Assembly: GCA_029263125.1 (NCBI GenBank)
Contig: JAJCYD010000038.1
Coordinates: 62,001 to 126,000 of the forward strand
Direction of reading: 5' to 3'
Source: Solirubrobacteraceae bacterium
Lineage (GTDB): Bacteria; Actinomycetota; Thermoleophilia; Solirubrobacterales; Solirubrobacteraceae
DNA: 64,000 nucleotides
Part shown: positions 25,982 through 63,671 of the stretch, piece by piece
How the letters are laid out: each line of letters begins with the position of its first letter
Numbering within the stretch: the stretch's first letter is position 1
Position numbers and translations under genes: made by a program
Notes under the pieces: model-generated
What the model was told of the DNA's origin: nothing
Database searches by the model: none
What the model saw: only the letters and a program-made list of their open reading frames with translations

Positions 25982-26926
25982 TCAGCGGGTAACGGCGATG
26001 GCTCCTCGGTAGGCTTCCGCTGTCCGCCGTAGACCGACTTCGAAGTCGACAGCGGGCTCATAGCCGAGGTACTTGCGAGCGCGCGAGATGTCGGCGAGTG
26101 AATGCTTGACGTCGCCGGGGCGGGGGGCGCAATGGATCGCCTTGACATCGGTCTCCAGCACGCGGTTGAGGATGCGGACGAGGTCGTTGAGGGAGCGTTG
26201 GCGCCCACAGGCGACGTTGAAGGCGCGGCCGCGCGCCTCGGGAGCGTCCAAGGCCAAGAGGTTTGCCTGCACGACGTCATCGATGAACGTGAAGTCGCGC
26301 GACTGCTCGCCGTCTCCGAAGATCTCCGGTGCCTGGCCCTGCTGCAGCGCGACGATGAACTTGGGGATGACGGCGCTGTACTGCGATTTAGGATCCTGTC
26401 GCGGGCCGAAGACGTTGAAATATCGCAGTGCCACGGTCTCCAGGCCGTAGACACGGTCGAAGCTCAGCGCATACTGCTCGGCGGCGAGCTTGGCCACCGC
26501 ATAGGGTGCGAGCGGGCTGGCCGCCATCGTTTCCACCCGCGGCAGGCCGGGCGTGTCACCGTAGATCGAGGATGACGACGCGACGACGACGCGACGCACG
26601 CCTTCGTCGCGGGCGGTGAGCAGCACATTGAGCGTGCCGCCGATGTTGGTCTCGCTGGAGGTCAGCGGATCCTGCACTGAGCGGGGAACGGATGGCAGCG
26701 CGCCCTGGTGCAGCACGACGTCGCACCCGCGTACGGCGGCGTGTACCCGCTCGTAGGAGCGCAAGTCGCCCTCCAGCATCTCGTACTCGCCATCGAGGCC
26801 CGCGAGGTTGCCGCGGAAGCCGGTGGAGTAGTTGTCGAGCACCCGAACCTCGTCGCCACGCCGCAGCAGCGCCGAGACGAGGTGTGACCCGATGAACCCT
26901 GCCCCGCCTGTAACCAAGACTCGCAA
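25982..26926 (-). CDS. NAD-dependent sugar epimerase/dehydratase (UDP-GlcNAc/GalNAc 4-epimerase-like)
   Basis: 314-aa extended short-chain dehydrogenase. TGGAGFIGSHL at residue 6 binds NAD; the catalytic set is SSSSIYGD with YAVAK (Tyr and Lys). RYFNVFGPRQDP and SRDFTFIDDVV are typical of WbpP/GalE-like polysaccharide epimerases. Probable role is 4-epimerisation of a UDP-hexose or UDP-HexNAc(A) for the glycan. TTG 26926 is used as start; TATACT is 8 nt upstream. Monocistronic or last gene after the sigma-like gene. Confidence 0.87.
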   Translation of the reverse strand: MRVLVTGGAGFIGSHLVSALLRRGDEVRVLDNYSTGFRGNLAGLDGEYEMLEGDLRSYERVHAAVRGCDVVLHQGALPSVPRSVQDPLTSSETNIGGTLNVLLTARDEGVRRVVVASSSSIYGDTPGLPRVETMAASPLAPYAVAKLAAEQYALSFDRVYGLETVALRYFNVFGPRQDPKSQYSAVIPKFIVALQQGQAPEIFGDGEQSRDFTFIDDVVQANLLALDAPEARGRAFNVACGRQRSLNDLVRILNRVLETDVKAIHCAPRPGDVKHSLADISRARKYLGYEPAVDFEVGLRRTAEAYRGAIAVTR

Positions 26927-27033: not shown

Positions 27034-28479
27034 CTAGTCGCCAACCGGCACCGGACGCGTCGTGGGGGCCGGCGGCTGAGAGGGCGACGTTGTCGTTGAC
27101 GGTGATGTGGACGTGACCGATGGCGTTGTCGTCGAGGGCGTCGTCGTTGAGGGCGTTGTCGTTGAGGGCGTTGTCGTTGTCGTCGAGGGTGTCGTTGTCG
27201 TTGAGGGCGTTGTCGTCGTCGTTGTCGTGGAGGGTGTCGTCGTCGTGGATGGTGACGTCACCTTCTTGGGTGGTGTTGCCACGGGTGGAGCCACGGGGCG
27301 GCGCTGAGCGGCGAGCTGCTCGCGCTCCCGCTCGGCGGAGGCAGGTTGCCGTCGCGCCTTGCGCCGCGCCTGCTCGGAGTCAGATCGCGCCGGCTCCGGC
27401 TCGGGCGTCGTGCCGGTGCGGGCCGATCCTCGCTTCCGTTTCTGTGACGACAATCGGTCGGCGGCGTCCTGGAGCGTGCCGTTGGTGGCTGCGGACCTTG
27501 GCACACTGGCTGCGGATGGCGCAGAGTCTGCGGAGGGCGGGGAAACGCCCAGCAACGTGCCGAGCACTGCGCCGGCGAGGAGTACTCCAATCAGCGCCAG
27601 AGCCAGTATCGCCGGGCTCACGTGGCCGACAAGGCCGCGGCGCCTGCCCCGAGGATCCCCGTATCGACGAGCCGTCATGCGCTGGCCGACATGCCCGAGC
27701 CTCGCGGCGAGGCCGGCCACGACGCCACCGGCCGTCGGAAGGCGCCGGCTCGGCGGTCGTGGTGGATGCATCTCGCGCCGTCCTGTGGGCTCGGCGGTCG
27801 CACGGTGGTCGTGCGGCGTAGAGGTCGCCTGCGGGCGCTGTAGTTCTGCTGGGCTGCGCACCGGATCGGTTGTGTCATTGGCGGGAACGGTTTCTGGCTG
27901 TCGCGCGGGCAGTCCGCCCCTCTCGAGGTTCGCCATGAGCGCGCTGTGAACAGCGGCGATATCGCCCGCAAGCGCGGTCACCGGTGCGGCTTCCAGCAGC
28001 GCCGACGCGATCAGCCGAGCGACGTTCGCGGGCAGCGGTGCGTCGGGCGGCCGTTCGTAGGCCCGTTCGGCGGCGTGGTGACGCCGCAGCGTGTAGCGGC
28101 ACTCAGAACAGGACGCGACGTGGTGGGTGACACGCTCAAGGTCGGCACTGGCGAGCGTCTGCTCTATCCAGTCGACGAGAAGGTGCCCGTCCGAGCACGG
28201 CTCTTCCTTCGCTGCTGGGCGCGATGTCTGAGCTGCCGCGGAACGGCGAGTTGCGCTGAGCAACGTCGCCTCCAGGTCGAGATCTGGGTCGTCCTCGGCC
28301 CAGACCCTCTCGCGAAACTCGCAGAAAGCATCCCTCGTTGCGCGCCTAGCCAGACCAGGCGCGGTGGCGTACTCACAATATGCGAGTACCGCTGCGCCCC
28401 GCGTCCTACAAAGTGCTGCGAGTGCGTCTGGATCGCCGTCCCGGATGCTCGCCGAGTCGATCGTCTCGAGCCCGCGCAC
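27034..28479 (-). CDS. Membrane protein joining a sigma-region-2-like domain to a zinc anti-sigma motif (paralogue A)
   Basis: 481 aa. Residues 12-82 (DGDPDALAALC, AFCEFRERVW) resemble region 2 of ECF sigma factors but no region 4 follows. H120-x3-C124-x2-C127 is the zinc motif of anti-sigma factors. After a polar linker there is one membrane helix (about 289-311), then a Lys/Arg-rich part and a Thr/Pro/Ser tail of TPSTTT repeats that would lie outside the cell. It aligns without gaps with the protein at 61,453 over the first 170 residues. GTG 28479 is fixed by a TATCCT box 7 nt upstream, also shared. Function unknown; a membrane signalling role is inferred. Confidence 0.75.
   Translation of the reverse strand: MRGLETIDSASIRDGDPDALAALCRTRGAAVLAYCEYATAPGLARRATRDAFCEFRERVWAEDDPDLDLEATLLSATRRSAAAQTSRPAAKEEPCSDGHLLVDWIEQTLASADLERVTHHVASCSECRYTLRRHHAAERAYERPPDAPLPANVARLIASALLEAAPVTALAGDIAAVHSALMANLERGGLPARQPETVPANDTTDPVRSPAELQRPQATSTPHDHRATAEPTGRREMHPPRPPSRRLPTAGGVVAGLAARLGHVGQRMTARRYGDPRGRRRGLVGHVSPAILALALIGVLLAGAVLGTLLGVSPPSADSAPSAASVPRSAATNGTLQDAADRLSSQKRKRGSARTGTTPEPEPARSDSEQARRKARRQPASAEREREQLAAQRRPVAPPVATPPKKVTSPSTTTTPSTTTTTTTPSTTTTPSTTTTTPSTTTPSTTTPSTTTPSVTSTSPSTTTSPSQPPAPTTRPVPVGD
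27115..27262 (-). repeat. Tandem repeats encoding TPSTTT tail
   Basis: Units of 12-18 bp such as GTCGTTGAGGGC (plus strand) repeat about ten times and encode Thr/Pro/Ser repeats at the C-terminus of the sigma-like membrane protein. Copy-number change would stay in frame. Confidence 0.75.
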
Positions 28480-28863: not shown

Positions 28864-29358
28864 TCAGCGGGCGCTGCGACGCGGTATCCGGCGCAACACC
28901 AGGCCACCCGCCATCAGCAGAAGGCCGCCAATCGTCAGCGGGATCGCTGCATAGCCGGTGAAGGGAAGACTTGGCTGACCCGTGGCCTGGATCGGAACGA
29001 CGACATCCGGGTTCTCGGAGGGCTCGCCGGTGCCGGACGGAAGCTCGGGGGTGCTGCCCGGGAGCTCGGGCTCGCCGGTGGTCGGTGGCGTCAGCGTCGC
29101 CACGGGGGGTGCCGCCACGGGCTGGGAGGTTGGCGATGTCACGCCTGATCCGCCCGGAGGTGTAGTCGGTGTCGCAGTTCCGCCGCCGGGAGGAGTTCCA
29201 GGTCCGTCCCCGCCGCCGGGGGGAATGCCGGGTCCGCCGTACTGAGCCGCGGAAACGCTGGTCCGGTCTGAGATCGCCGTCGCGGCGAATGCGACATCGC
29301 TCCCAGCAACGGCGACGCCGAAGATGGCCGATACGACGATCACGGCTCGAAACCTCAT
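28864..29358 (-). CDS. LPXTG-anchored small surface protein
   Basis: 164 aa. A signal peptide (MRFRAVIVVSAIFGVAVAG..., cut near AFA at about residue 25), a Gly/Pro/Thr-rich middle (GGPGIPPGGGDGPGTPPGGG) and a sorting signal: LPFTG, a hydrophobic helix (IPLTIGGLLLMAGGLVL) and a basic tail RRIPRRSAR. This is the layout for sortase-mediated attachment to peptidoglycan. The middle has no fold I recognise. ATG 29358 has GAAAGG 10 nt upstream. No sortase gene is in the window. Confidence 0.8.
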   Translation of the reverse strand: MRFRAVIVVSAIFGVAVAGSDVAFAATAISDRTSVSAAQYGGPGIPPGGGDGPGTPPGGGTATPTTPPGGSGVTSPTSQPVAAPPVATLTPPTTGEPELPGSTPELPSGTGEPSENPDVVVPIQATGQPSLPFTGYAAIPLTIGGLLLMAGGLVLRRIPRRSAR

Positions 29359-29633
29359 ACAGCAACAGCCTTTCTTCATCTGCGAGCGCTTACCGGCGCT
29401 GCTCTGCGAACAGGCATACGCTCGGACAGACATCCCCCATTCAACGTGCTGGATGCTGCACCCTACCGCACCGAACGGCGTCTTGGCGACTCCGCGCCAG
29501 GAATTCGCCGGGTGCTCCGCGGCACCCAGCCTATGGGCGCTCAGCGGACTCCCCATCGATCCCTCGCGATGTCGCCAAGGTCGAGGTGCGCAGCACCAGA
29601 CGACCACCTGACCTTCGGTCCTGCGTCCTTGCG

Positions 29634-49572: not shown

Positions 49573-50664
49573 CTACTGGGCGGCGAGATCGCTCAACCAG
49601 CGCGCGAGCTGGCGGTCGGTGTGCTCCTGGGTGTACTGCGATTCGTAGCGCCGGCGCGCGGCGCGGCTCATGCGATCGCGCAGCCCGGGCTCGCCGAGCA
49701 GCGTGAGGATGCGCTCGGCCAGCTGGGATGGCACGGGATCGTCGAGGACGAAGCCCGAGGCGCCGTCGATCACCGTCTCGGCGATCGCCCCACGGTCAGT
49801 CGTGACGACCGGCAGCCCTGCCGCGAGCGCCTCGAGCACCACGCGCGGATGGCCCTCCGGCTCGGCGGGAGGAAACAGCAGGTATCCCGCCTGCGCCAAG
49901 ACGTCGCTCTTGCTCTGCCCGCTCACCGGCCCGCGGAACTCGATGCGGTCGCCGAAGTCGGCTGCCATGTCGCGCATCTGACGATCCAGCTGCGGGCTCT
50001 CGGGGCTGCCGGCGAAGATGAAGCGCGCCGTGGGCCGCTCGCGCAGCACCATGATCGCGGCCTCCAGCGCCTCGACGACGCCCTTGCGGCGACGCAGGTT
50101 GCTCAGGTAGAGGCCTGTCTCCCCGTGACGCTCGCCGGTGTCCAGCCGCAGGTCGGGCGTGCCGTTGACGACGACGGTGATCCGCTCTTCGGCGATCAGC
50201 CCCGCGAAGATCCAGTGCAGGCGCGAGCCCATGACAGCCATCGAGCTGACGCGGCGCAGCGTGCCACGGATCCACCAGCGCGCAACGCGCGACTGTGCGT
50301 CATAGAAGCCGCGGAACTCCGAGCCTCGCAGGTGCGCCGCGACCTTCCATCCACGCGCCGCGGCAAGCCGGACGTACAGTGAGTCGCGCAGCACGGCGAG
50401 CAGGCCCTGAGACAGGGGCAGGTACACGACGCCCCGCGGACCTCGCAGCTGGCGTGCGAGGTCCAGCAGGCTGCGCAGACCGATCCACACGTTCTGCACG
50501 TCCAGCCGGCCGATGTTCTGCGCGTCGCGACCGTCGCTGAGGTCGACGTGGCGCACGACGAACGCCTCGGCGAGATCCGGATTGGCGAGGACGAGCGAGG
50601 TCGAGATCGTCACACCGTGCAGGGGCGGCGGGAGTCCGCCGATGACCACCAGCCGCGGCTTCAT
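49573..50664 (-). CDS. Glycosyltransferase family 4
   Basis: 363 aa, GT-B fold. IGGLPPPLHGVTISTSLVL opens the N-domain (Gly-rich acceptor loop); the C-domain has LYLSNLRRRKGVVEALEA, FAGSPESPQLDRQM and FPPAEPEGHPRVVLEALAAG with the E-x7-E donor motif. ATG 50664 overlaps the stop of the polymerase gene. A cytoplasmic transferase that adds one sugar of the repeat unit. Confidence 0.9.
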   Translation of the reverse strand: MKPRLVVIGGLPPPLHGVTISTSLVLANPDLAEAFVVRHVDLSDGRDAQNIGRLDVQNVWIGLRSLLDLARQLRGPRGVVYLPLSQGLLAVLRDSLYVRLAAARGWKVAAHLRGSEFRGFYDAQSRVARWWIRGTLRRVSSMAVMGSRLHWIFAGLIAEERITVVVNGTPDLRLDTGERHGETGLYLSNLRRRKGVVEALEAAIMVLRERPTARFIFAGSPESPQLDRQMRDMAADFGDRIEFRGPVSGQSKSDVLAQAGYLLFPPAEPEGHPRVVLEALAAGLPVVTTDRGAIAETVIDGASGFVLDDPVPSQLAERILTLLGEPGLRDRMSRAARRRYESQYTQEHTDRQLARWLSDLAAQ

Positions 50665-52421
50665 GCGGTCACCCTTCGCGCGTTGAACTCCTTTGTCACG
50701 ACGGCGAAGACGATCCACGCCAGGAACGTCAGTCGCGTCACCTCGAACCAGTTCTCCAACACCGCCATCTGCAGCAGGACGAACATGCTGACGGTGCTCG
50801 CGCAGAGCAGCGCCGGCAACGGATCGCCGTCGCTCGCCGTCCGCACCGACGTCATCGTCATGCGCAGGGTGAACAGGAACGCCCACACGTAGAGCCCGAC
50901 GATCAGCGCGAACCCCAGCACGCCGACCTCCGCAAGGAGCGACAGATAGCTTGAGAACGGTGAGCTCAAGGCCCGCGAGCCGTCGACGACCTCCGCGTCC
51001 AGCAGCTGCGGGACGACGTACTTGTCTGAGACGTCGGTCGTGTACAGGCGACCGTTGGTCAGCGCCTTGACGTAGTCGCCGGCGACATTTGAGCCCGACG
51101 AGGAAATGGCGGCGCGCGCGAAGGTCTGCCAGCCGCGGCTGGAGTACGTGCCCGGCCCGGTTCCCGTCAGGATGAAGCGCGCGTCCTCGGTGTACAGCTG
51201 CCCCACGACCTGAGCGGGGCCGAGGCGCTGCTTGACGAAACTCGTCGGGTCGCCGCGCGATTGCTCGATCGCGGTGCCGAACTTCAGCTCGGGAACGTTC
51301 TGGGCGACGTACACCAGCGTGCACAGCAGCCCTCCCACCGCGAGGATCCCGATCAGCGCACCTCGCCCGCGGGCGAAGCTCAACACGGCGCCCAGCAGCA
51401 GGGTCGTCAGGAACGTCGTGATCAGCAGTGAGCGGTACTGCGCCAGGAAGATCACGACCATGACCGCAAGCAGCAGGAACGGCACGAGCTTTGAGACCAG
51501 ACGCCGCCGCTCGAACGTGAAGATGCCGGCCAGCAGGCCGACGCTGACCAGCAGGAAGAACACGAGCTGATAGGCGTTCTCGCCGAAGGTGCCGGCGATG
51601 ACGTCGGGGTTCTTCGTCGCCAGGTACTCCGGCAGCTGGACCCCGAAGGCGAGGACGAGCTGCAGCACGGTGATCACGACCAGCAACCGCGACAGTCGCA
51701 CGGCCGAGCCCGGGATCCACAGCCGGTGTACCGCGTAGAAGACGACGACGGGCCCGATGAAGCCGTAGAGGAACATCAGGGCGGGCGCCGGCTCGACCCG
51801 CGTGAGGTTCGTCATGGCCGCCAGCGCGAAGACTGCCAGGAACAGGAAGGCGATCACGAGCGCGGGCGCGGGCGCGCGTACCTGCTTGGTCGCAGGTGAC
51901 GAGAACGCCGCCGCGACGCCGAGTAGCACGAAGATCGGGATGTCGACGAAGTTCGCCGCTCGCGGCAGGACCGACAGCAGCTCGGTGAACGCCCGGATCA
52001 CGAGCAGCAGCGTCAGCGAGCCAAGCACGAGCACGGTCGGGAACCTCGCGCCGGGAGCAGTCCGCTCGGGCTCGGCGGCGCTGGACGGCGACGGCGCGCT
52101 TGCCGCGATCGGGGTGCGCTGGACGGTCTCCTGAAACCAGCTCACGGGGCGTCCGGTCGCGTCCGCGATCGCCAGCAGGTGGGGTGTGGCGTCGACGGCG
52201 TCGCGTTCCAGGCGTTGCACGTGCCACAGCGACAGCCCGATGCGGCGACCGAGCTCCTTGGCGGTGAGGCCGGCGCGGCGGCGTGCCAGCGCGATCCGGC
52301 TGCCGAGCTCTGGATCTGCGACGGACGCTTCGCCCGCGTTCGGGCCCTGCCTCCGGCCGCGGCCGCGAAGCGGGCCCAATCGTGAGCCGAAGGACCACGG
52401 GCCGGTCGCGGGCGTGGTCAT
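50661..52421 (-). CDS. XRE helix-turn-helix fused to O-antigen ligase/polymerase (Wzy-like)
   Basis: 586 aa. A short basic N-terminus, then at about 36-95 an XRE-type helix-turn-helix (GSRIALARRRAGLTAKELGR, RIGLSLWHVQRLERD), a Pro/Ser linker, and from about 130 roughly eleven membrane helices of the O-antigen ligase/Wzy type, with a large outer loop (FVKQRLGPAQVVGQL, GTGPGTYSSRGWQTF). Polymerises or ligates exported repeat units. The HTH faces the cytoplasm; it may bind DNA or protein. ATG 52421 overlaps the previous stop by ATGA, so the HTH is truly part of this gene. Confidence 0.82.
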   Translation of the reverse strand: MTTPATGPWSFGSRLGPLRGRGRRQGPNAGEASVADPELGSRIALARRRAGLTAKELGRRIGLSLWHVQRLERDAVDATPHLLAIADATGRPVSWFQETVQRTPIAASAPSPSSAAEPERTAPGARFPTVLVLGSLTLLLVIRAFTELLSVLPRAANFVDIPIFVLLGVAAAFSSPATKQVRAPAPALVIAFLFLAVFALAAMTNLTRVEPAPALMFLYGFIGPVVVFYAVHRLWIPGSAVRLSRLLVVITVLQLVLAFGVQLPEYLATKNPDVIAGTFGENAYQLVFFLLVSVGLLAGIFTFERRRLVSKLVPFLLLAVMVVIFLAQYRSLLITTFLTTLLLGAVLSFARGRGALIGILAVGGLLCTLVYVAQNVPELKFGTAIEQSRGDPTSFVKQRLGPAQVVGQLYTEDARFILTGTGPGTYSSRGWQTFARAAISSSGSNVAGDYVKALTNGRLYTTDVSDKYVVPQLLDAEVVDGSRALSSPFSSYLSLLAEVGVLGFALIVGLYVWAFLFTLRMTMTSVRTASDGDPLPALLCASTVSMFVLLQMAVLENWFEVTRLTFLAWIVFAVVTKEFNARRVTA

Positions 52422-53817: not shown

Positions 53818-55383
53818 TCAGGACGGCGACTTGGCCTTGCGCGAGTCCGGCGCGTACCCGTACCCGTAGCCGTAGCTGCCCATGAACGCCTCGTCGGCCT
53901 CGGCGCCGGTCACCGCGAAGCCGAGCTTGGTCACCGGGGCTGTCTCGATCAGGCGGCGCAGCTCTTCCAGCGCCGGGCGCCGGATGCTCGAGATCTTCGT
54001 CAGGATGATCAGCGCGTCGACCTTCTGTGTGAGGTTGATGGCATCGCTGACCGCCAGCATCGCCGGAGCGTCGATCAACACGAGGTCGGCACGGTCCTCG
54101 AGGCGGGCCAGCACGTCGCTGAGGGCCTGTGAACGCACGAACTCCGACGGGTTGGGCGGCAGCGGGCCGGCCGGTAGCACCTCGAGCGTCCCGGCGGCCT
54201 CGTCGTGATGGCTCTGGCCAGGGGTGGGCTCGGAGATCGAGATCGGCACGAGCGCCTCTTCCAGCCACGCGCGCCCGAGTGCCACCTCGGTGATCCCGGC
54301 CTTGCCGCTGAGTCCGAAGAAGCGGTGGACCACCGGGCGGCGCAGGTCGAGGTCCACCAGCACTACGCGCTTGCCCGAGCGCGCGAAGGTCACGGCGAGG
54401 TTGGCGATCGTCGTGGACTTGCCCTCTGCCGGATTGGCGCTGGTGACCATGAACGAGCTCGCGCCGCAGTCGAGGTTGGCGAACTCGATGTTCGTCGCCA
54501 TCAACTGGAAGGCCTCGGTCTCGGGTGCGTCGGGCGTGACGATCATCGTCAGGGCATGGCGATTGCGCAGGTTCTTGGCGGGCTCATAGAGTCGTCCGAG
54601 CAGGGGCAGTCCGAGGACCCGCTCGACATCCTCGGCCGAGCGGACCTTCGTATTCAGCGCGTCGCGCATCAGCACGAGGCCGATGCCGAGGACGAGCCCG
54701 AGCACGCCGCCGAAAATGCCGTTGCGCGTCGGATGAGGTTGCACCTGTGAGGCAGACCGCGCCGGGCGTCCGAGCAGCGCAATCGAGTCGAGCAGCAGCT
54801 CGCGCTCGCGCAGGGTCTGATTGCGCGACGTCAGATCCGCGTAGACGTTGGAGTCCGTGCGGCCGCGATTGCGAAGGCCGCGCAGCTGCTCCTCGACCTC
54901 CAGCCGCGCCTTGCGCAGGGCGCCGGTGTCCAGCTTGCGCCGGTAGGCCACGTAGCGCTTGGCGTAGGTGTTGGTGAGCGTCGACGCCGCCTCGCGGCCG
55001 GGGTCGGTGACCGAGAAGGTCAGCACGTCCGCGCTGCGGCTCGCCACGACCGATGAGCGCGCCAGGAATGTGCTCAGATCCGGCGCGCCGGACTTCTTCA
55101 GCGTCGGCTTGACGATCGCGGGGACCCGAGCGACGAGCGCCTGGGTCTCCAGGACCCGCGCGGGCTGCACTCCCGTCTGCGACACGTCGGCCAGCGACGA
55201 GCCGACGTTCTTGGTGTCGATGAAGACGTCCGCCGTGGCCTGGTAGAGCGGTTGCTGACGGGAGGAGAGAAACACCGCGGTGCCGGCGAGGAGCACCGTC
55301 ACGAGCAGGATCAGCGGCACGCCTCGACGCAGGGTGCGGGCGGAGCGGCTGGCAACCGCGACGTCGGGATTGTTGAGGCTCAC
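53818..55383 (-). CDS. Wzz/CapAB-type chain-length protein and tyrosine autokinase (BY-kinase)
   Basis: 521 aa. A Wzz domain with two membrane helices (about 20-40 and 228-248) is followed by the ATPase part: Walker A SANPAEGKSTTIANLA, Walker A' VVLVDLDLRRP and Walker B LVLIDAPAML. The C-terminal tail SYGYGYGYAPD supplies the tyrosine cluster for autophosphorylation. Controls polymer length and export together with Wzy. The CpsB-type phosphatase at 62,931 would reverse it. GTG start overlaps the previous stop. Confidence 0.93.
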   Translation of the reverse strand: MSLNNPDVAVASRSARTLRRGVPLILLVTVLLAGTAVFLSSRQQPLYQATADVFIDTKNVGSSLADVSQTGVQPARVLETQALVARVPAIVKPTLKKSGAPDLSTFLARSSVVASRSADVLTFSVTDPGREAASTLTNTYAKRYVAYRRKLDTGALRKARLEVEEQLRGLRNRGRTDSNVYADLTSRNQTLRERELLLDSIALLGRPARSASQVQPHPTRNGIFGGVLGLVLGIGLVLMRDALNTKVRSAEDVERVLGLPLLGRLYEPAKNLRNRHALTMIVTPDAPETEAFQLMATNIEFANLDCGASSFMVTSANPAEGKSTTIANLAVTFARSGKRVVLVDLDLRRPVVHRFFGLSGKAGITEVALGRAWLEEALVPISISEPTPGQSHHDEAAGTLEVLPAGPLPPNPSEFVRSQALSDVLARLEDRADLVLIDAPAMLAVSDAINLTQKVDALIILTKISSIRRPALEELRRLIETAPVTKLGFAVTGAEADEAFMGSYGYGYGYAPDSRKAKSPS

Positions 55384-57632: not shown

Positions 57633-59150
57633 TCAATTCGCACCACGACGAGCAAGCACGACCGGGAAGGTGTGCAGCACGAGCTTGACGTCTCCCCACA
57701 GCGACCAGTTGGTGACGTAGAGGTAGTCGAGCTTGACCATCTCGTCGAAGGGGATCGTCGTTCGGCCCAGCACTTGCCATAGGCCCGTCATGCCCGGCGT
57801 CAGGTCCAAGCGCGTGCGTGCCCACTCGCCCACCTGGCCGTCCTCTTCGGGGACCAGCGGTCGTGGGCCGACGAGGCTCATGTCGCCGGTCAGGACGTTG
57901 AGCAGCTGCGGGATCTCGTCGAGGCTCGTGCTGCGCAGGAAGCGCCCGACGCGCGTCGCGCGGGGATCGTTCTCCAGCAGCAGCCAATTCGGGTCGCGGC
58001 TGAGCTTCTGCAGCTCGCCGCGCTGTGCCTCGGCATCGACGACCATCGTGCGGAACTTGAAGATCTGGAACTCCGCGCCGCTCTTGCCCACCCGTCGCTG
58101 TCGAAAGAGTGTCGGTCCCTTGGAGTCGATCCTGATCGCCAGCGCGACGGCGACGAACACCGGTGCGAACAGCGTCATGAGGATCAGCGCTCCGACGACG
58201 TCCATACCGCGTTTCATCGCACGGGCAGAGCGTGGCAGGACGGGTGGGTTGACGCCCAGCAGCGTAATGCCGCCGACGTGGTCGACGGCCACGCTCGTGC
58301 CGAGCACCCCGAACGCGGCCGGCAGGAGGCTGACCTTGACCGACAGCTGCTTGCAGCGCTTGAGCAGGACAAGCACCACCTCGTCGGCGAACCCGGCCGC
58401 CTCGACGATCACCCGGTCGATTCGGTGCGTGGCGATCAGGGAGGCGATGTCGGTGTCCTCGAGCTCCCCGAGCGACTCCAGGCCGGCCGGTGCGGCGGCG
58501 CTCGCCGCGTCGGTGACGATGCCGACCGGTTCCAAGCCCAGCGACGGGCGGTCACGCATGCGCATCGCCAGCGGCGCCGTGCTGCGGCCGCTTCCGACGA
58601 ACAGCACCCGCTCGGGGCAGAACAGGCGGTTGACCGCGCTGCGGACCGACGCTCGCAGCGTGACGAGGCACACGCCGGCCGCGGTCGCGAAGGTGAGCAT
58701 CGTCCAGAACTCGACCTTCGTGGTCGGGGCCAGCTGGTAGTAGGCCCACATCGCACTCGTCCCGATGAGGATCGTGTGAAACAGCCCGGGCAACTCGTCG
58801 GCGCCGCTGTGGCTGATACGGCGCGCGTCGTTGCTGTAGAGGCCGTACACGTTCATCAGCAGCAGCCAGACGGGGATCGTCAGCAGCGCCCACAGGCCGT
58901 GGCTGGCCAGGTGGAACGGTCCCGTGGCGATCGCGGTGACCACCAGGCCGAGGAGCAGCGCCATGACGTCGGCCGCGACCAGCAGGCGGCGCATGTAGTA
59001 GTCGCGAGACACATGGCGATCGGCGACGACGGGCGCGCTGATGTCGGGAGCCAGGAGTTCGACGCGATCCAGGCCGGCGAGCGAGCGCCGGACGCGCTCG
59101 GTCATGGCGGCTCGGGAGCGTTCGCGAGTGGCGCTCTGGGTGTCGCTCAT
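57633..59150 (-). CDS. Polyprenyl-phosphate glycosylphosphotransferase (WbaP/CpsE-like)
   Basis: 505 aa. Four N-terminal membrane helices, a CoA-binding-like middle (RVLFVGSGRSTAPLAMRMRD), another helix, and the C-terminal bacterial sugar transferase domain: KRGMDVVGALILMTLFAPVF, GKSGAEFQIFKFRTM, RFLRSTSLDEIPQLLNVLTG and SLVGPRPLVPEE. Starts the glycan by moving a sugar-1-phosphate to undecaprenyl phosphate. ATG 59150 overlaps the stop of the Gfo/Idh gene (ATGA). Confidence 0.95.
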   Translation of the reverse strand: MSDTQSATRERSRAAMTERVRRSLAGLDRVELLAPDISAPVVADRHVSRDYYMRRLLVAADVMALLLGLVVTAIATGPFHLASHGLWALLTIPVWLLLMNVYGLYSNDARRISHSGADELPGLFHTILIGTSAMWAYYQLAPTTKVEFWTMLTFATAAGVCLVTLRASVRSAVNRLFCPERVLFVGSGRSTAPLAMRMRDRPSLGLEPVGIVTDAASAAAPAGLESLGELEDTDIASLIATHRIDRVIVEAAGFADEVVLVLLKRCKQLSVKVSLLPAAFGVLGTSVAVDHVGGITLLGVNPPVLPRSARAMKRGMDVVGALILMTLFAPVFVAVALAIRIDSKGPTLFRQRRVGKSGAEFQIFKFRTMVVDAEAQRGELQKLSRDPNWLLLENDPRATRVGRFLRSTSLDEIPQLLNVLTGDMSLVGPRPLVPEEDGQVGEWARTRLDLTPGMTGLWQVLGRTTIPFDEMVKLDYLYVTNWSLWGDVKLVLHTFPVVLARRGAN

Positions 59151-60322: not shown

Positions 60323-61456
60323 CTACGCCGGGGAGAGATGGGCCACCACGCGCTCGATCTCGTCGACGGTGAGCTCTGCGGCCATCGGGAGGGACAGGAC
60401 CTCGGCTGCCCATGCGTCGGCGTTGGCCAACGACACCGGATGCGACGCCTTCCCGAGCGTCTCGAACGCCGGATGGCGATGCATTGCAGGTGAATAGTGA
60501 ATGCCGGTGGCGATGCCTTCGCTGTCCAACCGCGTCGCGAGCGCGTCGCGATTCCCACAGCGCACCGGATAGAGGTGATAGACGCATCGTGACCCCGGCC
60601 GCACGGGGAGGACGCGCAGCGAGGTGAGCGGCTCGATCAGGCGGTCATAGGTCGCGGCGTGCGCGCGGCGGGCCTGGTTGTAGGTGTCCAGGTGAGGCAG
60701 CTTTGCGCGCAGGAACGCGGCCTGCAGCCCATCCAGGCGCTCGTTGGCGCCGATCGACACGTGTTCGCCCTTGCGTCGCTGGCCGAGGTGGCGCAGCTCG
60801 CGCGCTCGTGCGGCGAGGGCGTCGTCGTCGGTGCAGATCGCGCCGCCGTCACCCAGGGCGCCGAGGTTCTTGCTCGGGTAGAAGGAGAAGGCGGCGCCGT
60901 CCCCGAGCGCTCCGGCACGACGATCGCCGTCAGACGCGCCGTGCGCCTGCGCCGCGTCCTCGAGCACGAACAGCCCGTGCCTGGCCGCGAGATCGCGGAT
61001 CTCTCGCATCTCGCAGACCTGGCCGTAGAGATGCACCGCAAGAATCGCTGCGGTACGCGCGGTGAGGACCTCGGCAGCCGAGCCGCCGTGCAACAGCCCC
61101 GACTGCGCGTCGACATCGGCGAAGACGGGCGTCGCGCCCGCGTGGATCACTCCGAGCGCCGAGGCGATGAACGTGTGTGCCGGCACGATGACCTCGTCGC
61201 CGGGGCCGACGCCCGCCGCGCCGAGGGCGATCGCGATGGCGGCGGTGCCGGAAGCGACGCCGACGCAGTGGGCCACCCCGCAATAGGCCGCGAAGTCGGC
61301 CTCGAATGCCTCGACTTCCGCTCCGAGGATGAACCCGCTGGACCCGACGACACGCTCGAAGGCCTCGCGCAGCTCGGGCATCAGGCGCTCGTGCTGGCGA
61401 TCGAGGGTCACGAACGGGACCGGGTCGATCGCGGTGGCGATCCTTTGCGGGCTCAT
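60323..61456 (-). CDS. DegT/DnrJ/EryC1-type PLP aminotransferase
   Basis: 377 aa. ASGTAAIAIALGAAGVGPGD, VIVPAHTFIASALGV, VLEDAAQAHGA (PLP-ring Asp) and SFYPSKNLGALGDGGAI (PLP lysine). With the Gfo/Idh dehydrogenase next to it, the pair fits 3-keto then 3-amino sugar formation (WlbA/WlbC-like). Its ATG overlaps the stop of the sigma-like gene (ATGA). Confidence 0.92.
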   Translation of the reverse strand: MSPQRIATAIDPVPFVTLDRQHERLMPELREAFERVVGSSGFILGAEVEAFEADFAAYCGVAHCVGVASGTAAIAIALGAAGVGPGDEVIVPAHTFIASALGVIHAGATPVFADVDAQSGLLHGGSAAEVLTARTAAILAVHLYGQVCEMREIRDLAARHGLFVLEDAAQAHGASDGDRRAGALGDGAAFSFYPSKNLGALGDGGAICTDDDALAARARELRHLGQRRKGEHVSIGANERLDGLQAAFLRAKLPHLDTYNQARRAHAATYDRLIEPLTSLRVLPVRPGSRCVYHLYPVRCGNRDALATRLDSEGIATGIHYSPAMHRHPAFETLGKASHPVSLANADAWAAEVLSLPMAAELTVDEIERVVAHLSPA

Positions 61457-62853
61457 GTCTCGCCGTCGAGCGTGAGCTCTCCGCCCGGCGGTTGGTGGTC
61501 AGCCTGCGGTGGCGGGGCGGTGACGGGGGGCGGGGCGGTGACGGGGAGCGGGGTCGCCGGCGCACCAGGGGAGGGTGGCTGCGGGTCGGGTGTGGTGCTC
61601 TGCGGCTTCGTCGTGGCGGGCGGAGGGGTAGTGGACGTCGGCGGAGCCTGCGCGGGACGGGGCCCGGCGGTCGCCTCGCGGCTGGGCGCCTGGCGAACCC
61701 CGGTGGTCTCGGAGGCCGAGCTCTTCTTCGAGCTCTTCTTCGAGCTCGTCCTCGCGGCCGGCTGTGACCGCGATGCATCGGACCTGGTGGACCGCTTGTC
61801 GGCCGCCTCCTTCAGCGTCCCCTTGGACGGGGTCGACCGCGTCGTCTTCGCCAGACGGTCTGCGGCGGCCGGCGACGGCTCCGGGGAGGACACGGCCGTG
61901 CTCAGCACGAGGACCAGCGAGGTGCCCGCGGTCAGCACCGTCACGGCCGCGATCGCCACGATCGCCGGCCTGCGACTGGAGTCCCGGTGGCGCATGCGGC
62001 GCGGATCGCCATAGCGGCCGACCGGGAGGAGCCCGGCGATGCTCGAGCGCAGGCTGGACAGGCGAGCGGCGGCGCTCCCGCCCGATAGCCCTCGCCGGCC
62101 CGAGCGCGGCGAGCGTGCTCGGTTGATGCGGAAGCGGGACGCCCGGCCGGCGGCGCTCGCGGCGACCCGGCCTGGCCCGCGCCGTCGCGGTCCGGATGGC
62201 GGTGGCTGTGTGGCCGGCTGCGCTGCGGAGCGCGACGGCGCAGCGACCGGCGGCGCCCACGCGCCCACGTTCCCATCACATGCCAGTCCAGCCACTCCGA
62301 GGCGCTGCAGCAGTGCATCGCGGACCGCCACGTCGTCGCCTTCGAGTGCGTTGACCGGCGCGGCAGCCAGCAGCGCGGAGACGATCAGGCGAGCGAACCC
62401 CGGCGGAAGCGGCGCGTTCGGCGGTCGCTCGTAGCCACGCTCGGCGGCCTGCAGGCGCACGAGCGCATCGCCGCAGGACGAGCATCCGGCAGCGTGATCG
62501 TCGATCGGCTCGCGCGCCGCTGGGTCATGCGCCCTGCGTGCCATCCAGCCGACGAGCGCGTGATCGTCCGGACACTGAGCGCTGCCCGCGCGGGCGCGTG
62601 ACGCTCGCGCGGCGGCGGACTGGCGCGTGACAGTCAGCAGCGTCGCGGCGAGATCCATGTCGGGGTCGTCCTCGGCCCAGACCCGTTCGCGAAACTCGCA
62701 GAAGGCCTCCGCGACCGCATCGCGCGCCTCGCCGGGTGCGGCCACGCATTCGCAGTAGGCGAGCACGGAGGAGCTGTGCCTCAGATAGAGGCGTGCGAGC
62801 GTGTCAGGGTCACCGTCCTGCACCCCCTGCGCCGTGACTGCGAGGCCATCCAC
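61453..62853 (-). CDS. Membrane protein joining a sigma-region-2-like domain to a zinc anti-sigma motif (paralogue B)
   Basis: 466 aa. Same architecture as the protein at 27,034: sigma-region-2-like part (DGDPDTLARLYLRHSSSVLA, AFCEFRERVWAEDDPD), zinc motif H120-x3-C124-x2-C127, basic linker, one membrane helix (about 290-315), then a Ser/Lys part and a Pro/Thr-rich tail predicted outside. No region 4. It is the first gene of the large glycan operon, coupled by ATGA to the DegT gene, so it may sense the envelope and control or tether the machinery. GTG 62853 lies 7 nt after TATCCT. Confidence 0.75.
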   Translation of the reverse strand: MDGLAVTAQGVQDGDPDTLARLYLRHSSSVLAYCECVAAPGEARDAVAEAFCEFRERVWAEDDPDMDLAATLLTVTRQSAAARASRARAGSAQCPDDHALVGWMARRAHDPAAREPIDDHAAGCSSCGDALVRLQAAERGYERPPNAPLPPGFARLIVSALLAAAPVNALEGDDVAVRDALLQRLGVAGLACDGNVGAWAPPVAAPSRSAAQPATQPPPSGPRRRGPGRVAASAAGRASRFRINRARSPRSGRRGLSGGSAAARLSSLRSSIAGLLPVGRYGDPRRMRHRDSSRRPAIVAIAAVTVLTAGTSLVLVLSTAVSSPEPSPAAADRLAKTTRSTPSKGTLKEAADKRSTRSDASRSQPAARTSSKKSSKKSSASETTGVRQAPSREATAGPRPAQAPPTSTTPPPATTKPQSTTPDPQPPSPGAPATPLPVTAPPPVTAPPPQADHQPPGGELTLDGET

Positions 62854-62866: not shown

Positions 62867-62917
62867 GCGCCGTCCGTGGACCTGAATCTGGTCGTGCGAG
62901 CCGTTGCTCACGTGGGG

Positions 62918-62923
62918 TACTGT
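62918..62923 (+). promoter_or_regulatory. -10 box TACTGT for leaderless phosphatase mRNA
   Basis: TACTGT, 7 nt before TTG 62931, facing away from the operon promoter at 62,861. Confidence 0.5.
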
Positions 62924-62930
62924 CGACACC

Positions 62931-63671
62931 TTGATCGACCTGCACGCCCACGTCCTGCCCGGGATCGATGACGGCCCCGCGGACGTCGACGGGTCGCTCG
63001 CGCTTCTGCGCGTGGCCGCGGCGAGCCGCACGCGGCTGATCGTCGCGACACCCCACCTGCGGGCGGATTTCCCGGCGGTGTGTGTCGAGCACATCGCCGC
63101 CGCGTGCGCGGACCTTCAGGATCGGGTGCCGCCGGAATGGAACCTGCGGATCGTCCCTGGTGGCGAGGTCGATCTGACATGGGCCATGGACGCCGACGAC
63201 GAGCAGCTCGAGATGGCGTCGTTCGGCGGGCGCGGCACAGACCTGCTTGTCGAGACTCCGTATGGCCGGCTCGGCGACGACTTCGAGCAGCGCATCGACG
63301 AGGTCGCAGCGCGCGGCTTTCGCGTCCTGCTTGCCCATCCGGAGATGAGCCAGAGCCTGCAGCGCCGGCCCAAGCGGATTCTGGCGCTCGTCGATCGCGG
63401 CGTGTTGCTCCAGATCACGGCGACGTCGCTGCTGCGCGACCGCCGCAGGTCCAAGAGCGCGAGGCTCGCCCAGTGGCTGGTCGAGCATGGCCTCGCGCAC
63501 GTCATCGCCTCCGACGCGCACTCCGGCGGGGCGTGGCGTCCGCCGGGGCTTATGCAGGCGCTGCGCGCGGCGCGTGAACTCGCGCCCGGCCGGGCGATGT
63601 CGATGGTCAACGAGACGCCGGCGGCGATTCTCGCCGGCGATCAGATCGTCGCAGCGTCGCCAGTGGGGTGA
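62931..63671 (+). CDS. CpsB/YwqE-type tyrosine-protein phosphatase (PHP domain)
   Basis: 246 aa. IDLHAHVLPGIDDGP is the first metal-binding HxH motif of the PHP fold; ATPHLRADF, LLAHPEMSQSLQRRP and ASDAHSGGAWRPPG supply the remaining His/Asp ligands. Family members dephosphorylate BY-kinases, which fits the Wzz/BY-kinase at 53,818. TTG 62931 is set by the -10 box 7 nt upstream and places the HxH motif at the N-terminus, as usual. Confidence 0.9.
   Translation: MIDLHAHVLPGIDDGPADVDGSLALLRVAAASRTRLIVATPHLRADFPAVCVEHIAAACADLQDRVPPEWNLRIVPGGEVDLTWAMDADDEQLEMASFGGRGTDLLVETPYGRLGDDFEQRIDEVAARGFRVLLAHPEMSQSLQRRPKRILALVDRGVLLQITATSLLRDRRRSKSARLAQWLVEHGLAHVIASDAHSGGAWRPPGLMQALRAARELAPGRAMSMVNETPAAILAGDQIVAASPVG

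What the first reader, a model, noticed from the sequence alone, without database searches (positions are those of the whole stretch)
61453..62853. Sigma-region-2-like plus zinc anti-sigma motif in one membrane protein, twice in one glycan locus
The proteins at 27,034-28,479 and 61,453-62,853 both begin with a segment like region 2 of ECF sigma factors (DGDPD..., AFCEFRERVWAEDDPD), have an H-x3-C-x2-C zinc motif at the same residues (120, 124, 127), a single membrane helix and a low-complexity outer tail. They align without gaps over about 170 residues while the tails differ completely. Region 4 is absent, so they are not working sigma factors by known rules. They bracket the glycan section, and B leads the main operon. 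A fused sigma/anti-sigma membrane switch that regulates or tethers the glycan machinery would be a new type.
Basis: partly seen in the sequence, partly recalled or inferred. Interest (0 to 1): 0.75.

Follow-up and report, generated by a model that had tools for sequence, protein, structure and literature searches.

The report
Sigma-factor relics fused into membrane receptors
Two membrane proteins in a sugar-polymer gene cluster of a soil bacterium descend from a known kind of gene-switch protein, but have lost parts needed to run RNA polymerase while the rest is kept by selection, so the switch has probably been given a new job at the cell envelope.

Summary
Both window proteins have a sigma-region-2-like domain, a zinc anti-sigma domain (with an upstream Cys as fourth ligand), one membrane helix and a low-complexity tail. 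A third copy lies elsewhere in the genome. The family was found in one order, that of Solirubrobacteraceae.

Origin is well supported. The family aligns collinearly with full ECF sigma/anti-sigma fusions of the same order (hhalign E 4e-13), with region 4 as the missing piece. Fused sigma/anti-sigma membrane proteins are already known (ECF48/52/53). New here is a lineage without region 4 and with core and -10 contact residues largely gone (region 2.2 Gln 12/12 in fusions, 0/25 here; Trp/Tyr 12/12 versus 1/25). The domain is still under purifying selection (omega 0.14-0.29; linker plus tail 0.41-1.0). Two relatives beside a Wzc-type gene lost the zinc bundle but kept region 2 plus helix 4.

Neighbours are often glycosyltransferases, a Wzc-type protein or a sugar transferase, but in the commonest locus also proline dehydrogenase. 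Sister-family members add sortase or LytR_C.

Most likely this is a receptor or adaptor working by protein contacts rather than as a sigma factor. The mechanism is inferred.

The parts
61453..62853 (-). gene B: pseudo-sigma2 / zinc anti-sigma / membrane protein, 466 aa, GTG start
   Evidence: ORF; self match and paralogues
62605..62835 (-). B, sigma-region-2-like domain (residues 7-83)
   Evidence: hhalign of the family N-terminus to region 2 of fused ECFs, E 3.7e-9; AF2 helices 8-13, 16-37, 43-61, 68-88, block pLDDT over 90 for residues 11-80; sigmaE region 2 is top structural match
62425..62574 (-). B, zinc anti-sigma three-helix bundle, C94-H120-C124-C127
   Evidence: zf-HC2 at E up to 0.1 in 16 of 22 family members scanned, B itself not among them; family profile to RsiW 5wuq E 8.5e-4
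62338..62406 (-). B, helix 4 region of the anti-sigma domain (residues 150-172), the part that binds region 2 in class I anti-sigmas
   Evidence: AF2 helix 153-164; role of helix 4 from PMC7406223 passages; kept in L059/L060 where the bundle is deleted
61906..61962 (-). B, membrane helix (residues 298-316)
   Evidence: Kyte-Doolittle 2.38
61456..61905 (-). B, Pro/Thr/Ala/Ser-rich outer tail
   Evidence: composition
27034..28479 (-). gene A: paralogue, 481 aa from GTG 28479 (or ATG 28500)
28228..28458 (-). A, sigma-region-2-like domain (residues 8-84)
   Evidence: alignment to B and to the family
28051..28197 (-). A, zinc anti-sigma bundle, C95-H120-C124-C127
   Evidence: Pfam zf-HC2 E 2.4e-4, 21.6 bits against a cut-off of 22.2
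27964..28032 (-). A, helix 4 region (residues 150-172)
   Evidence: alignment
27553..27609 (-). A, membrane helix (residues 291-309)
27037..27552 (-). A, Thr/Pro/Ser-rich outer tail
60323..61456 (-). DegT/DnrJ aminotransferase, overlaps B by 4 bp (probable translational coupling)
   Evidence: Pfam E 2.8e-110; coordinates
62904..63671 (+). CpsB/CapC capsule phosphatase family, divergent from B with a 50-bp gap
   Evidence: Pfam E 1.4e-31; gap
25982..26926 (-). NAD-dependent sugar epimerase downstream of A (107-bp gap)
   Evidence: Pfam E 7.9e-64; gap
57633..59150 (-). initiating sugar transferase in the run of genes behind B
   Evidence: Bac_transf E 1.2e-63
53818..55383 (-). Wzc/CapD-like P-loop protein in the same run
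   Evidence: AAA_31 E 4.6e-8; same cluster as the Wzz-domain genes beside L059/L060 family members

Best explanation
A and B are descendants of ECF sigma/anti-sigma fusion receptors that deleted sigma region 4 and lost much of the region-2 surface that binds RNA polymerase and the -10 element. The remaining region-2 domain is most likely capped in the same chain by helix 4 of the anti-sigma domain, forming one stable cytoplasmic module on a single membrane helix with a variable outer tail. The module most likely works as a membrane receptor or adaptor: the state of the envelope, or of the tail, changes a protein-protein contact made by the cytoplasmic module with partners encoded beside it (glycosyltransferase, Wzc-type protein, EPS operon; in the commonest locus perhaps proline dehydrogenase). 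It does not direct transcription itself. Shown here: ancestry, domain order, loss of contact residues, purifying selection, neighbourhood. Inferred: capping in cis, the partner contact and the direction of signalling.
For: Collinear profile match to fused ECFs with region 4 as the gap: E 4e-13, probability 97.9; separately region 2 E 3.7e-9 and anti-sigma domain E 5e-12, shuffled controls nothing. Region-4-less proteins of both families form one group at 100/100 against the fusions, with A and B sisters at 100/99. Residues in 25 family versus 12 fused proteins: Gln of region 2.2 0/25 vs 12/12; second acid of the DAED motif D or E in 8/25 vs D in 12/12; Trp/Tyr of region 2.3 1/25 (a Tyr in L111) vs 12/12; Phe/Tyr two residues on 0/25 vs 12/12; the basic stretch after it is gapped in the family. 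DAED holds the acids that usually contact beta-prime (PMC8999054, passages). Omega of the region-2 domain is 0.14-0.29 in 9 of 9 pairs (several share a clade), linker plus tail 0.41-1.0. Two relatives beside a Wzc-type gene lack most of anti-sigma helices 1-3 and all zinc ligands but keep region 2 and helix 4; helix 4 binds regions 2.1/2.2 in known complexes (PMC7406223, passages). AF2 of B: pLDDT 88.4, pTM 0.86. Nearest gene on the 5' side is a GT4 in 7, GT2 in 3, Wzc-type in 2, sugar transferase in 1 of 26 family genes, against 15 GT4/GT2 genes among 781 control genes. Four of 4 sister-family proteins read end in sortase + peptidoglycan-binding (2) or LytR_C (2).
Against: No partner contact is shown. 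Contact maps of the AF2 model were not available to me, so capping in cis is inferred from homology and confidence values. The glycan association is partly one inherited locus, so the counts are not independent, and plain BLAST gave no significant excess. The same locus carries proline dehydrogenase (cluster in 8 of 29 fetched loci), and in L057/L058 the gene upstream is in a cluster whose one tested member is a response regulator. None of 4 sister-family loci showed a glycosyltransferase, Wzc-type or sugar-transferase neighbour with my profiles, though L163 has a hexapeptide-transferase gene just upstream. One sister-family protein has weak winged-helix matches at its N-terminus, which would point to DNA rather than to an enzyme partner. 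In 19 of 26 family rows the full zinc site is kept, so the bundle matters in most members.
Confidence: 0.5

Rival explanations
1. Sigma-factor mimicry or trans anti-sigma: the module still belongs to an ECF circuit. Either the zinc bundle captures region 4 of another ECF at the membrane, or the pseudo-region 2 titrates another anti-sigma, as PhyR does with NepR.
For: PhyR is a sigma-like domain with degenerate polymerase and promoter regions that titrates an anti-sigma (PMC8103513, passages). The zinc site is complete in 19 of 26 rows. The genome has 50 region-2 and 58 region-4 Pfam matches at E up to 0.001 (the latter probably include other HTH proteins) that could supply partners. One sister protein has weak winged-helix matches.
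Against: No Pfam region-2 or region-4 match, and no zf-HC2 match other than A itself, lies in the 64-kb window. L059 and L060 lost the region-4-binding bundle, yet their region 2 is under selection (omega 0.23).
Confidence: 0.25
2. The partner is metabolic: the family is tied to the proline dehydrogenase / aldehyde dehydrogenase operon, and the glycan link is secondary.
For: Proline dehydrogenase cluster c9 in 8 of 29 loci and the aldehyde-dehydrogenase-like cluster c13 in 6 (c13 named by eye), directly downstream with gaps of 2-29 bp; Pfam Pro_dh E 6.5e-81 for the one member tested.
Against: A, B, L059/L060, the GT4-coupled copies in L044/L045 and the soluble copies in L049/L053 show no such neighbour in the stretches held (L044 ends at the contig end).
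Confidence: 0.12
3. A working split sigma: region 2 is released by proteolysis and a separate protein supplies region 4, as in SigO-RsoA of Bacillus subtilis.
For: SigO-RsoA shows that regions 2 and 4 can be separate proteins (PMC8103513, passage).
Against: The region 2.2 Gln is gone in 25 of 25 and the region 2.3 Trp/Tyr in 24 of 25 members, and no region-4 match lies in the window.
Confidence: 0.05
4. A decaying relic, or a plain anti-sigma factor with a chance resemblance to region 2.
For: Pfam finds no sigma-2 domain and Foldseek E-values are weak (best 0.32).
Against: Profile E 3.7e-9 with clean shuffles; the first 18 structural rows are sigma chains (9n9q_C presumed); omega 0.14-0.29; one clade across two families.
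Confidence: 0.04

Closest known systems
ECF48/ECF52/ECF53 fused sigma/anti-sigma factors of Actinobacteria (e.g. SCO4117)
   Same: Sigma region 2, zinc anti-sigma domain, membrane helix, Pro-rich outer part, in that order; PMC8999054 and PMC5826349 passages
   Different: No region 4, region-2 contact residues largely lost, no carbohydrate-binding module found in A or B
Class I (zinc) anti-sigma factors: RsiW, ChrR, RsrA
   Same: C..H-x3-C-x2-C three-helix bundle plus helix 4; RsiW is the best solved sequence relative (5wuq, E 8.5e-4)
   Different: Carries its own sigma-2-like domain in the same chain; some members lost the zinc site or the bundle
PhyR sigma-like domain (sigma-factor mimicry)
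   Same: An ECF-like fold with degenerate polymerase and promoter regions used for protein contact (PMC8103513, passages)
   Different: PhyR has a full ECF-like domain and acts as a response regulator; here region 2 alone, fused to an anti-sigma domain in the membrane. Only a weak structural row for a PhyR (9by5, Z 2.6)
SigO-RsoA split sigma
   Same: A separate region-2 protein (PMC8103513, passage)
   Different: RsoA acts with region 4 in transcription; here the contact residues are largely lost and there is a membrane anchor

Membership tests
ECF sigma factor (group 4) | region 2 fold | tested here: met
ECF sigma factor (group 4) | region 4 | tested here: not met
   No region 4 in the chain; N profile vs region 4 0.3%
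ECF sigma factor (group 4) | conserved core-polymerase contact residues (DAED motif, Gln of region 2.2) | tested here: not met
   Gln 0/25; second DAED acid 8/25; B itself has E and D at the two DAED acid positions but Ala for Gln, A has neither acid
ECF52-type fused sigma/anti-sigma | zinc anti-sigma domain after the sigma part | tested here: met
ECF52-type fused sigma/anti-sigma | membrane helix and Pro-rich outer extension | tested here: met
ECF52-type fused sigma/anti-sigma | complete sigma2-sigma4 unit | tested here: not met
ECF52-type fused sigma/anti-sigma | carbohydrate-binding module outside (SCO4117) | tested here: not met
   No Pfam carbohydrate-binding match in A or B at E up to 10
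Class I zinc anti-sigma factor | HxxxCxxC bundle and helix 4 | tested here: met
Class I zinc anti-sigma factor | inhibits a cognate sigma factor | not testable with these tools
   needs binding and reporter assays; no sigma gene in the window
PhyR-like sigma mimic | sigma-like domain with degenerate polymerase surface | tested here: met
PhyR-like sigma mimic | titrates an anti-sigma factor | not testable with these tools
   needs binding assays

The most novel reading that the evidence does not exclude
A sigma factor turned into structure: region 2 locked by anti-sigma helix 4 has become a stand-alone, polymerase-independent module that Solirubrobacterales plug into membrane proteins (outer tails, sortase, LytR_C) to recruit or control envelope-glycan enzymes encoded next to it.
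Probability: 0.35. Interest if true: 0.78.

Novelty: new variant of a known kind. Interest (0 to 1): 0.6.

Why it matters
It would show a route by which a transcription factor and its inhibitor, once fused, can lose transcription and survive as a signalling or scaffolding module. The set of relatives gives natural steps: full fusion, region-4-less forms that keep some contact residues in the sister family, forms without the zinc bundle, tandem copies, and forms joined to sortase or LytR_C. It also means that annotation as 'anti-sigma' or 'sigma-like' could mislead for this lineage, and it offers candidate regulators of exopolysaccharide in a little-studied soil order.

Tried and rejected
Pfam and phmmer against the PDB with B alone gave nothing useful for the sigma part; profiles were needed. 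A single-protein genome scan found no relatives. Plasmids held none. BLAST of eight window glycan proteins was not significant: 7 of 29 loci versus 6 of 40 controls, p 0.37. I report it although iterated profiles gave 23 of 30 versus 9 of 40, p 9e-6. In one search the GT2 and ArnT-like seeds came from a family locus; without them 18 of 30 versus 9 of 40, p 0.0026 (counts by hand, test). The Wzx profile found only its seed and is uninformative. The 40 controls came from 13 of the host genomes, family segments were often shorter than the 19-kb controls, and orthologous loci are not independent.

Row sets differ by step. One search used 29 loci and one search used 30 (L052, a full-fusion locus, was added). 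From the 27 profile hits I dropped L052_08 (full fusion) and L051_10 (no region 2 aligned) before the residue counts, giving 25, and only L052_08 before the zinc and neighbour counts, giving 26. Family genes in L046, L049, L061, L153, L154 and L155 were missed by my gene caller and are in none of these counts. The 12 fusions were picked by me from hits, not at random; near-duplicates and forms without a clear zinc part were left out.

Foldseek gave 0 matches at E up to 0.001, and the tool warns that Z under about 13 is weak for helical bundles; I rely on the first 18 rows being sigma chains together with the sequence evidence. L059/L060 share a helix-4 extension with A and B, but the tree places them beside the third-copy type with weak support (92/49). 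The tandem reading of L107 spans a masked stretch; L108 does not.

Literature searches over an open-licence library listed no title or abstract opening that I recognised as describing a region-4-less fusion; one search returned nothing and searches listed 25 of 82. Most subscription papers are not held there. Matching the family's lost Trp/Tyr to W81 of M. tuberculosis SigH (PMC6411747, passages) is my inference from motif position.
Full report
WHAT IS THERE. Each encodes a region-2-like domain, a C..H-x3-C-x2-C zinc site, an Arg-rich linker, one clear membrane helix and a Pro/Thr/Ser/Ala-rich tail. They are 54-56% identical over the cytoplasmic domain. The genome holds a third copy on another contig, next to a GT4 glycosyltransferase gene. 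Relatives recovered by name are mostly Solirubrobacteraceae or Solirubrobacterales MAGs and Paraconexibacter antarcticus (9 loci).

FAMILY AND DISTRIBUTION. A profile of 22 members matched 37 of 232 genomes of the order at E up to 1e-8: 32 in the same family, 4 in family f2, 1 in f3; the f3 match and one f1 match (G023) cover only the anti-sigma part. An even sample of the phylum gave 5 of 396 genomes, all in the same family. At the loose cut-off of E 0.001, 94 of 146 genomes of the family match; many of these are short matches to the zinc part or to region 2 alone, and most of those I read were full sigma/anti-sigma fusions.

ORIGIN. Twelve fusions of the same order (region 2, region 4, zinc-type anti-sigma domain, zinc ligands lost in one) were aligned. 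The family profile aligns to them collinearly, residues 9-156 against 27-269, E 4e-13, and the middle left over is region 4. Split comparisons give region 2 E 3.7e-9 and anti-sigma domain E 5e-12; region 4 and five shuffles give nothing. In trees the region-4-less proteins and the fusions separate at 100/100, first with f1 members only (bootstrap not settled) and then with four f2 members added, where A and B are sisters at 100/99. The same genome keeps a full fusion (L063). Loss of region 4 from a fusion explains this better than a fresh joining of parts.

FOLD. AlphaFold2 on B residues 1-185 with nine relatives gave pLDDT 88.4 and pTM 0.86: four helices for region 2, three for the zinc bundle, then helix 4. 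A second model, on L034, gave 90.1 and 0.87. The best solved match is region 2 of E. coli sigmaE (4lup, Z 8.1, rmsd 2.7 over 92 residues; Foldseek TM 0.73 by target length but E 1.5), and the first 18 rows are sigma chains, 9n9q_C presumed. The zinc bundle with helix 4 of the second model aligns to RsiW (5wuq_D, Z 3.9, rmsd 8.6 over 69).

WHAT WAS LOST AND WHAT WAS KEPT. In 25 family proteins against 12 fusions, the region 2.2 Gln is 0/25 vs 12/12, the second acid of the DAED motif D or E in 8/25 vs D in 12/12, the region 2.3 Trp/Tyr 1/25 vs 12/12 and the following Phe/Tyr 0/25 vs 12/12; the basic stretch after it is gapped. B keeps both DAED acids, A neither. DAED holds the acids usually needed for beta-prime, and EcfP of group ECF43, which lacks it, needs phosphorylation (PMC8999054, passages). 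In SigH of M. tuberculosis a region-2 Trp stacks on the flipped -9 base (PMC6411747, passages). The hydrophobic pattern is kept. Nine close pairs, several from one clade, give omega 0.14-0.29 for region 2, 0.12-0.37 for the anti-sigma domain (8 pairs) and 0.41-1.0 for linker plus tail. The zinc site is complete in 19 of 26 rows.

A NATURAL DELETION. L059 and L060, copies in two same-genus genomes, lack most of helices 1-3 and all zinc ligands but keep region 2 and helix 4, with an extension (AAPVxALxGDxAAV) that A and B also have. In class I anti-sigmas, helices 1-3 hold region 4 and helix 4 holds regions 2.1/2.2, the clamp-helix site (PMC7406223, passages). With region 4 gone, the region-4 binder is dispensable while the region-2 binder stays. 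This is my main reason to infer a self-capped module.

NEIGHBOURS. B heads an EPS run (DegT, sugar transferase, Wzc-like, GT4s) and faces CpsB. Of 26 family genes, the nearest gene on the 5' side is GT4 in 7, GT2 in 3, Wzc-type in 2 and sugar transferase in 1; gaps of 2-10 bp or overlaps occur in L038, L044, L045, L053, L059, L060 and L111. A core glycan gene lies in 23 of 30 family loci versus 9 of 40 random segments from 13 host genomes (p 9e-6; 18 of 30 versus 9 of 40, p 0.0026 without two seed sets taken from a family locus); plain BLAST was not significant. Against a purely glycan reading, proline dehydrogenase (cluster 9) is in 8 of 29 loci; L057 and L058 follow a gene of a cluster whose tested member is a response regulator, and L112 and L159 of the same genus have an unidentified gene in the same overlap; the four f2 loci show no glycosyltransferase, Wzc-type or sugar-transferase gene by my profiles, though one has a hexapeptide-transferase gene next to it.

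FUSIONS IN THE SISTER FAMILY. Two f2 proteins continue into a sortase and a peptidoglycan-binding domain, two into LytR_C; one of the latter has weak winged-helix matches at its N-terminus. Three of the four read ADAVE where fusions have D-A-x-Q (by eye), which looks intermediate. Two f1 proteins carry tandem copies of the module (L107, with a masked stretch, and L108), and two copies end after the anti-sigma domain without a membrane helix (L053; the L049 gene).

HOW IT MOST LIKELY WORKS. See Best explanation: a membrane receptor or adaptor with a polymerase-dead, self-capped module. Ancestry I hold at about 0.9; the mechanism as a whole at 0.5. The main rival is a remaining role in an ECF circuit by mimicry or capture (0.25).

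NOVELTY. Fused sigma/anti-sigma membrane proteins and sigma mimicry are both known. I found no description of a region-4-less, polymerase-dead fusion lineage in the listings (open-licence library), so I rate it a new variant of a known kind.

Noticed in passing
window 50661-52421 (-): A multi-pass membrane protein (13 overlapping or separate hydrophobic segments in my scan; Wzy/ligase-like by topology only) with an N-terminal helix-turn-helix domain (HTH_31 E 2.3e-5) inside the EPS run: a DNA-binding-like domain fused to a probable polymer enzyme.
   Followed up: partly
window 28864-29607 (-): Frame upstream of A ending in LPFTG plus a hydrophobic stretch and Arg tail, i.e. a probable sortase-anchored wall protein; notable because sister-family relatives of A and B are fused to a sortase.
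   Followed up: no
L162:7640-9559 and L164:2215-4215: Region-2-like/zinc module fused across the membrane to a sortase and a peptidoglycan-binding domain.
   Followed up: partly
L161:8981-10810 and L163:1266-3140: Same module with LytR_C outside; winged-helix matches at the N-terminus, weak, in the first only.
   Followed up: partly
L107:3719-5182 and L108:3-1247: Tandem copies of the region-2-like/zinc module in one protein; L107 contains a masked stretch.
   Followed up: no
L043:6602-9426 and syntenic loci: The family gene directly precedes proline dehydrogenase and a probable aldehyde dehydrogenase in the commonest locus; the link is unexplained.
   Followed up: partly
L057:8596-9201: LuxR-type response regulator overlapping the family gene by 10 bp.
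   Followed up: no
L059:3467-3886: Outer region of the Wzc-linked copies looks like a folded domain but has no Pfam or PDB sequence match.
   Followed up: partly
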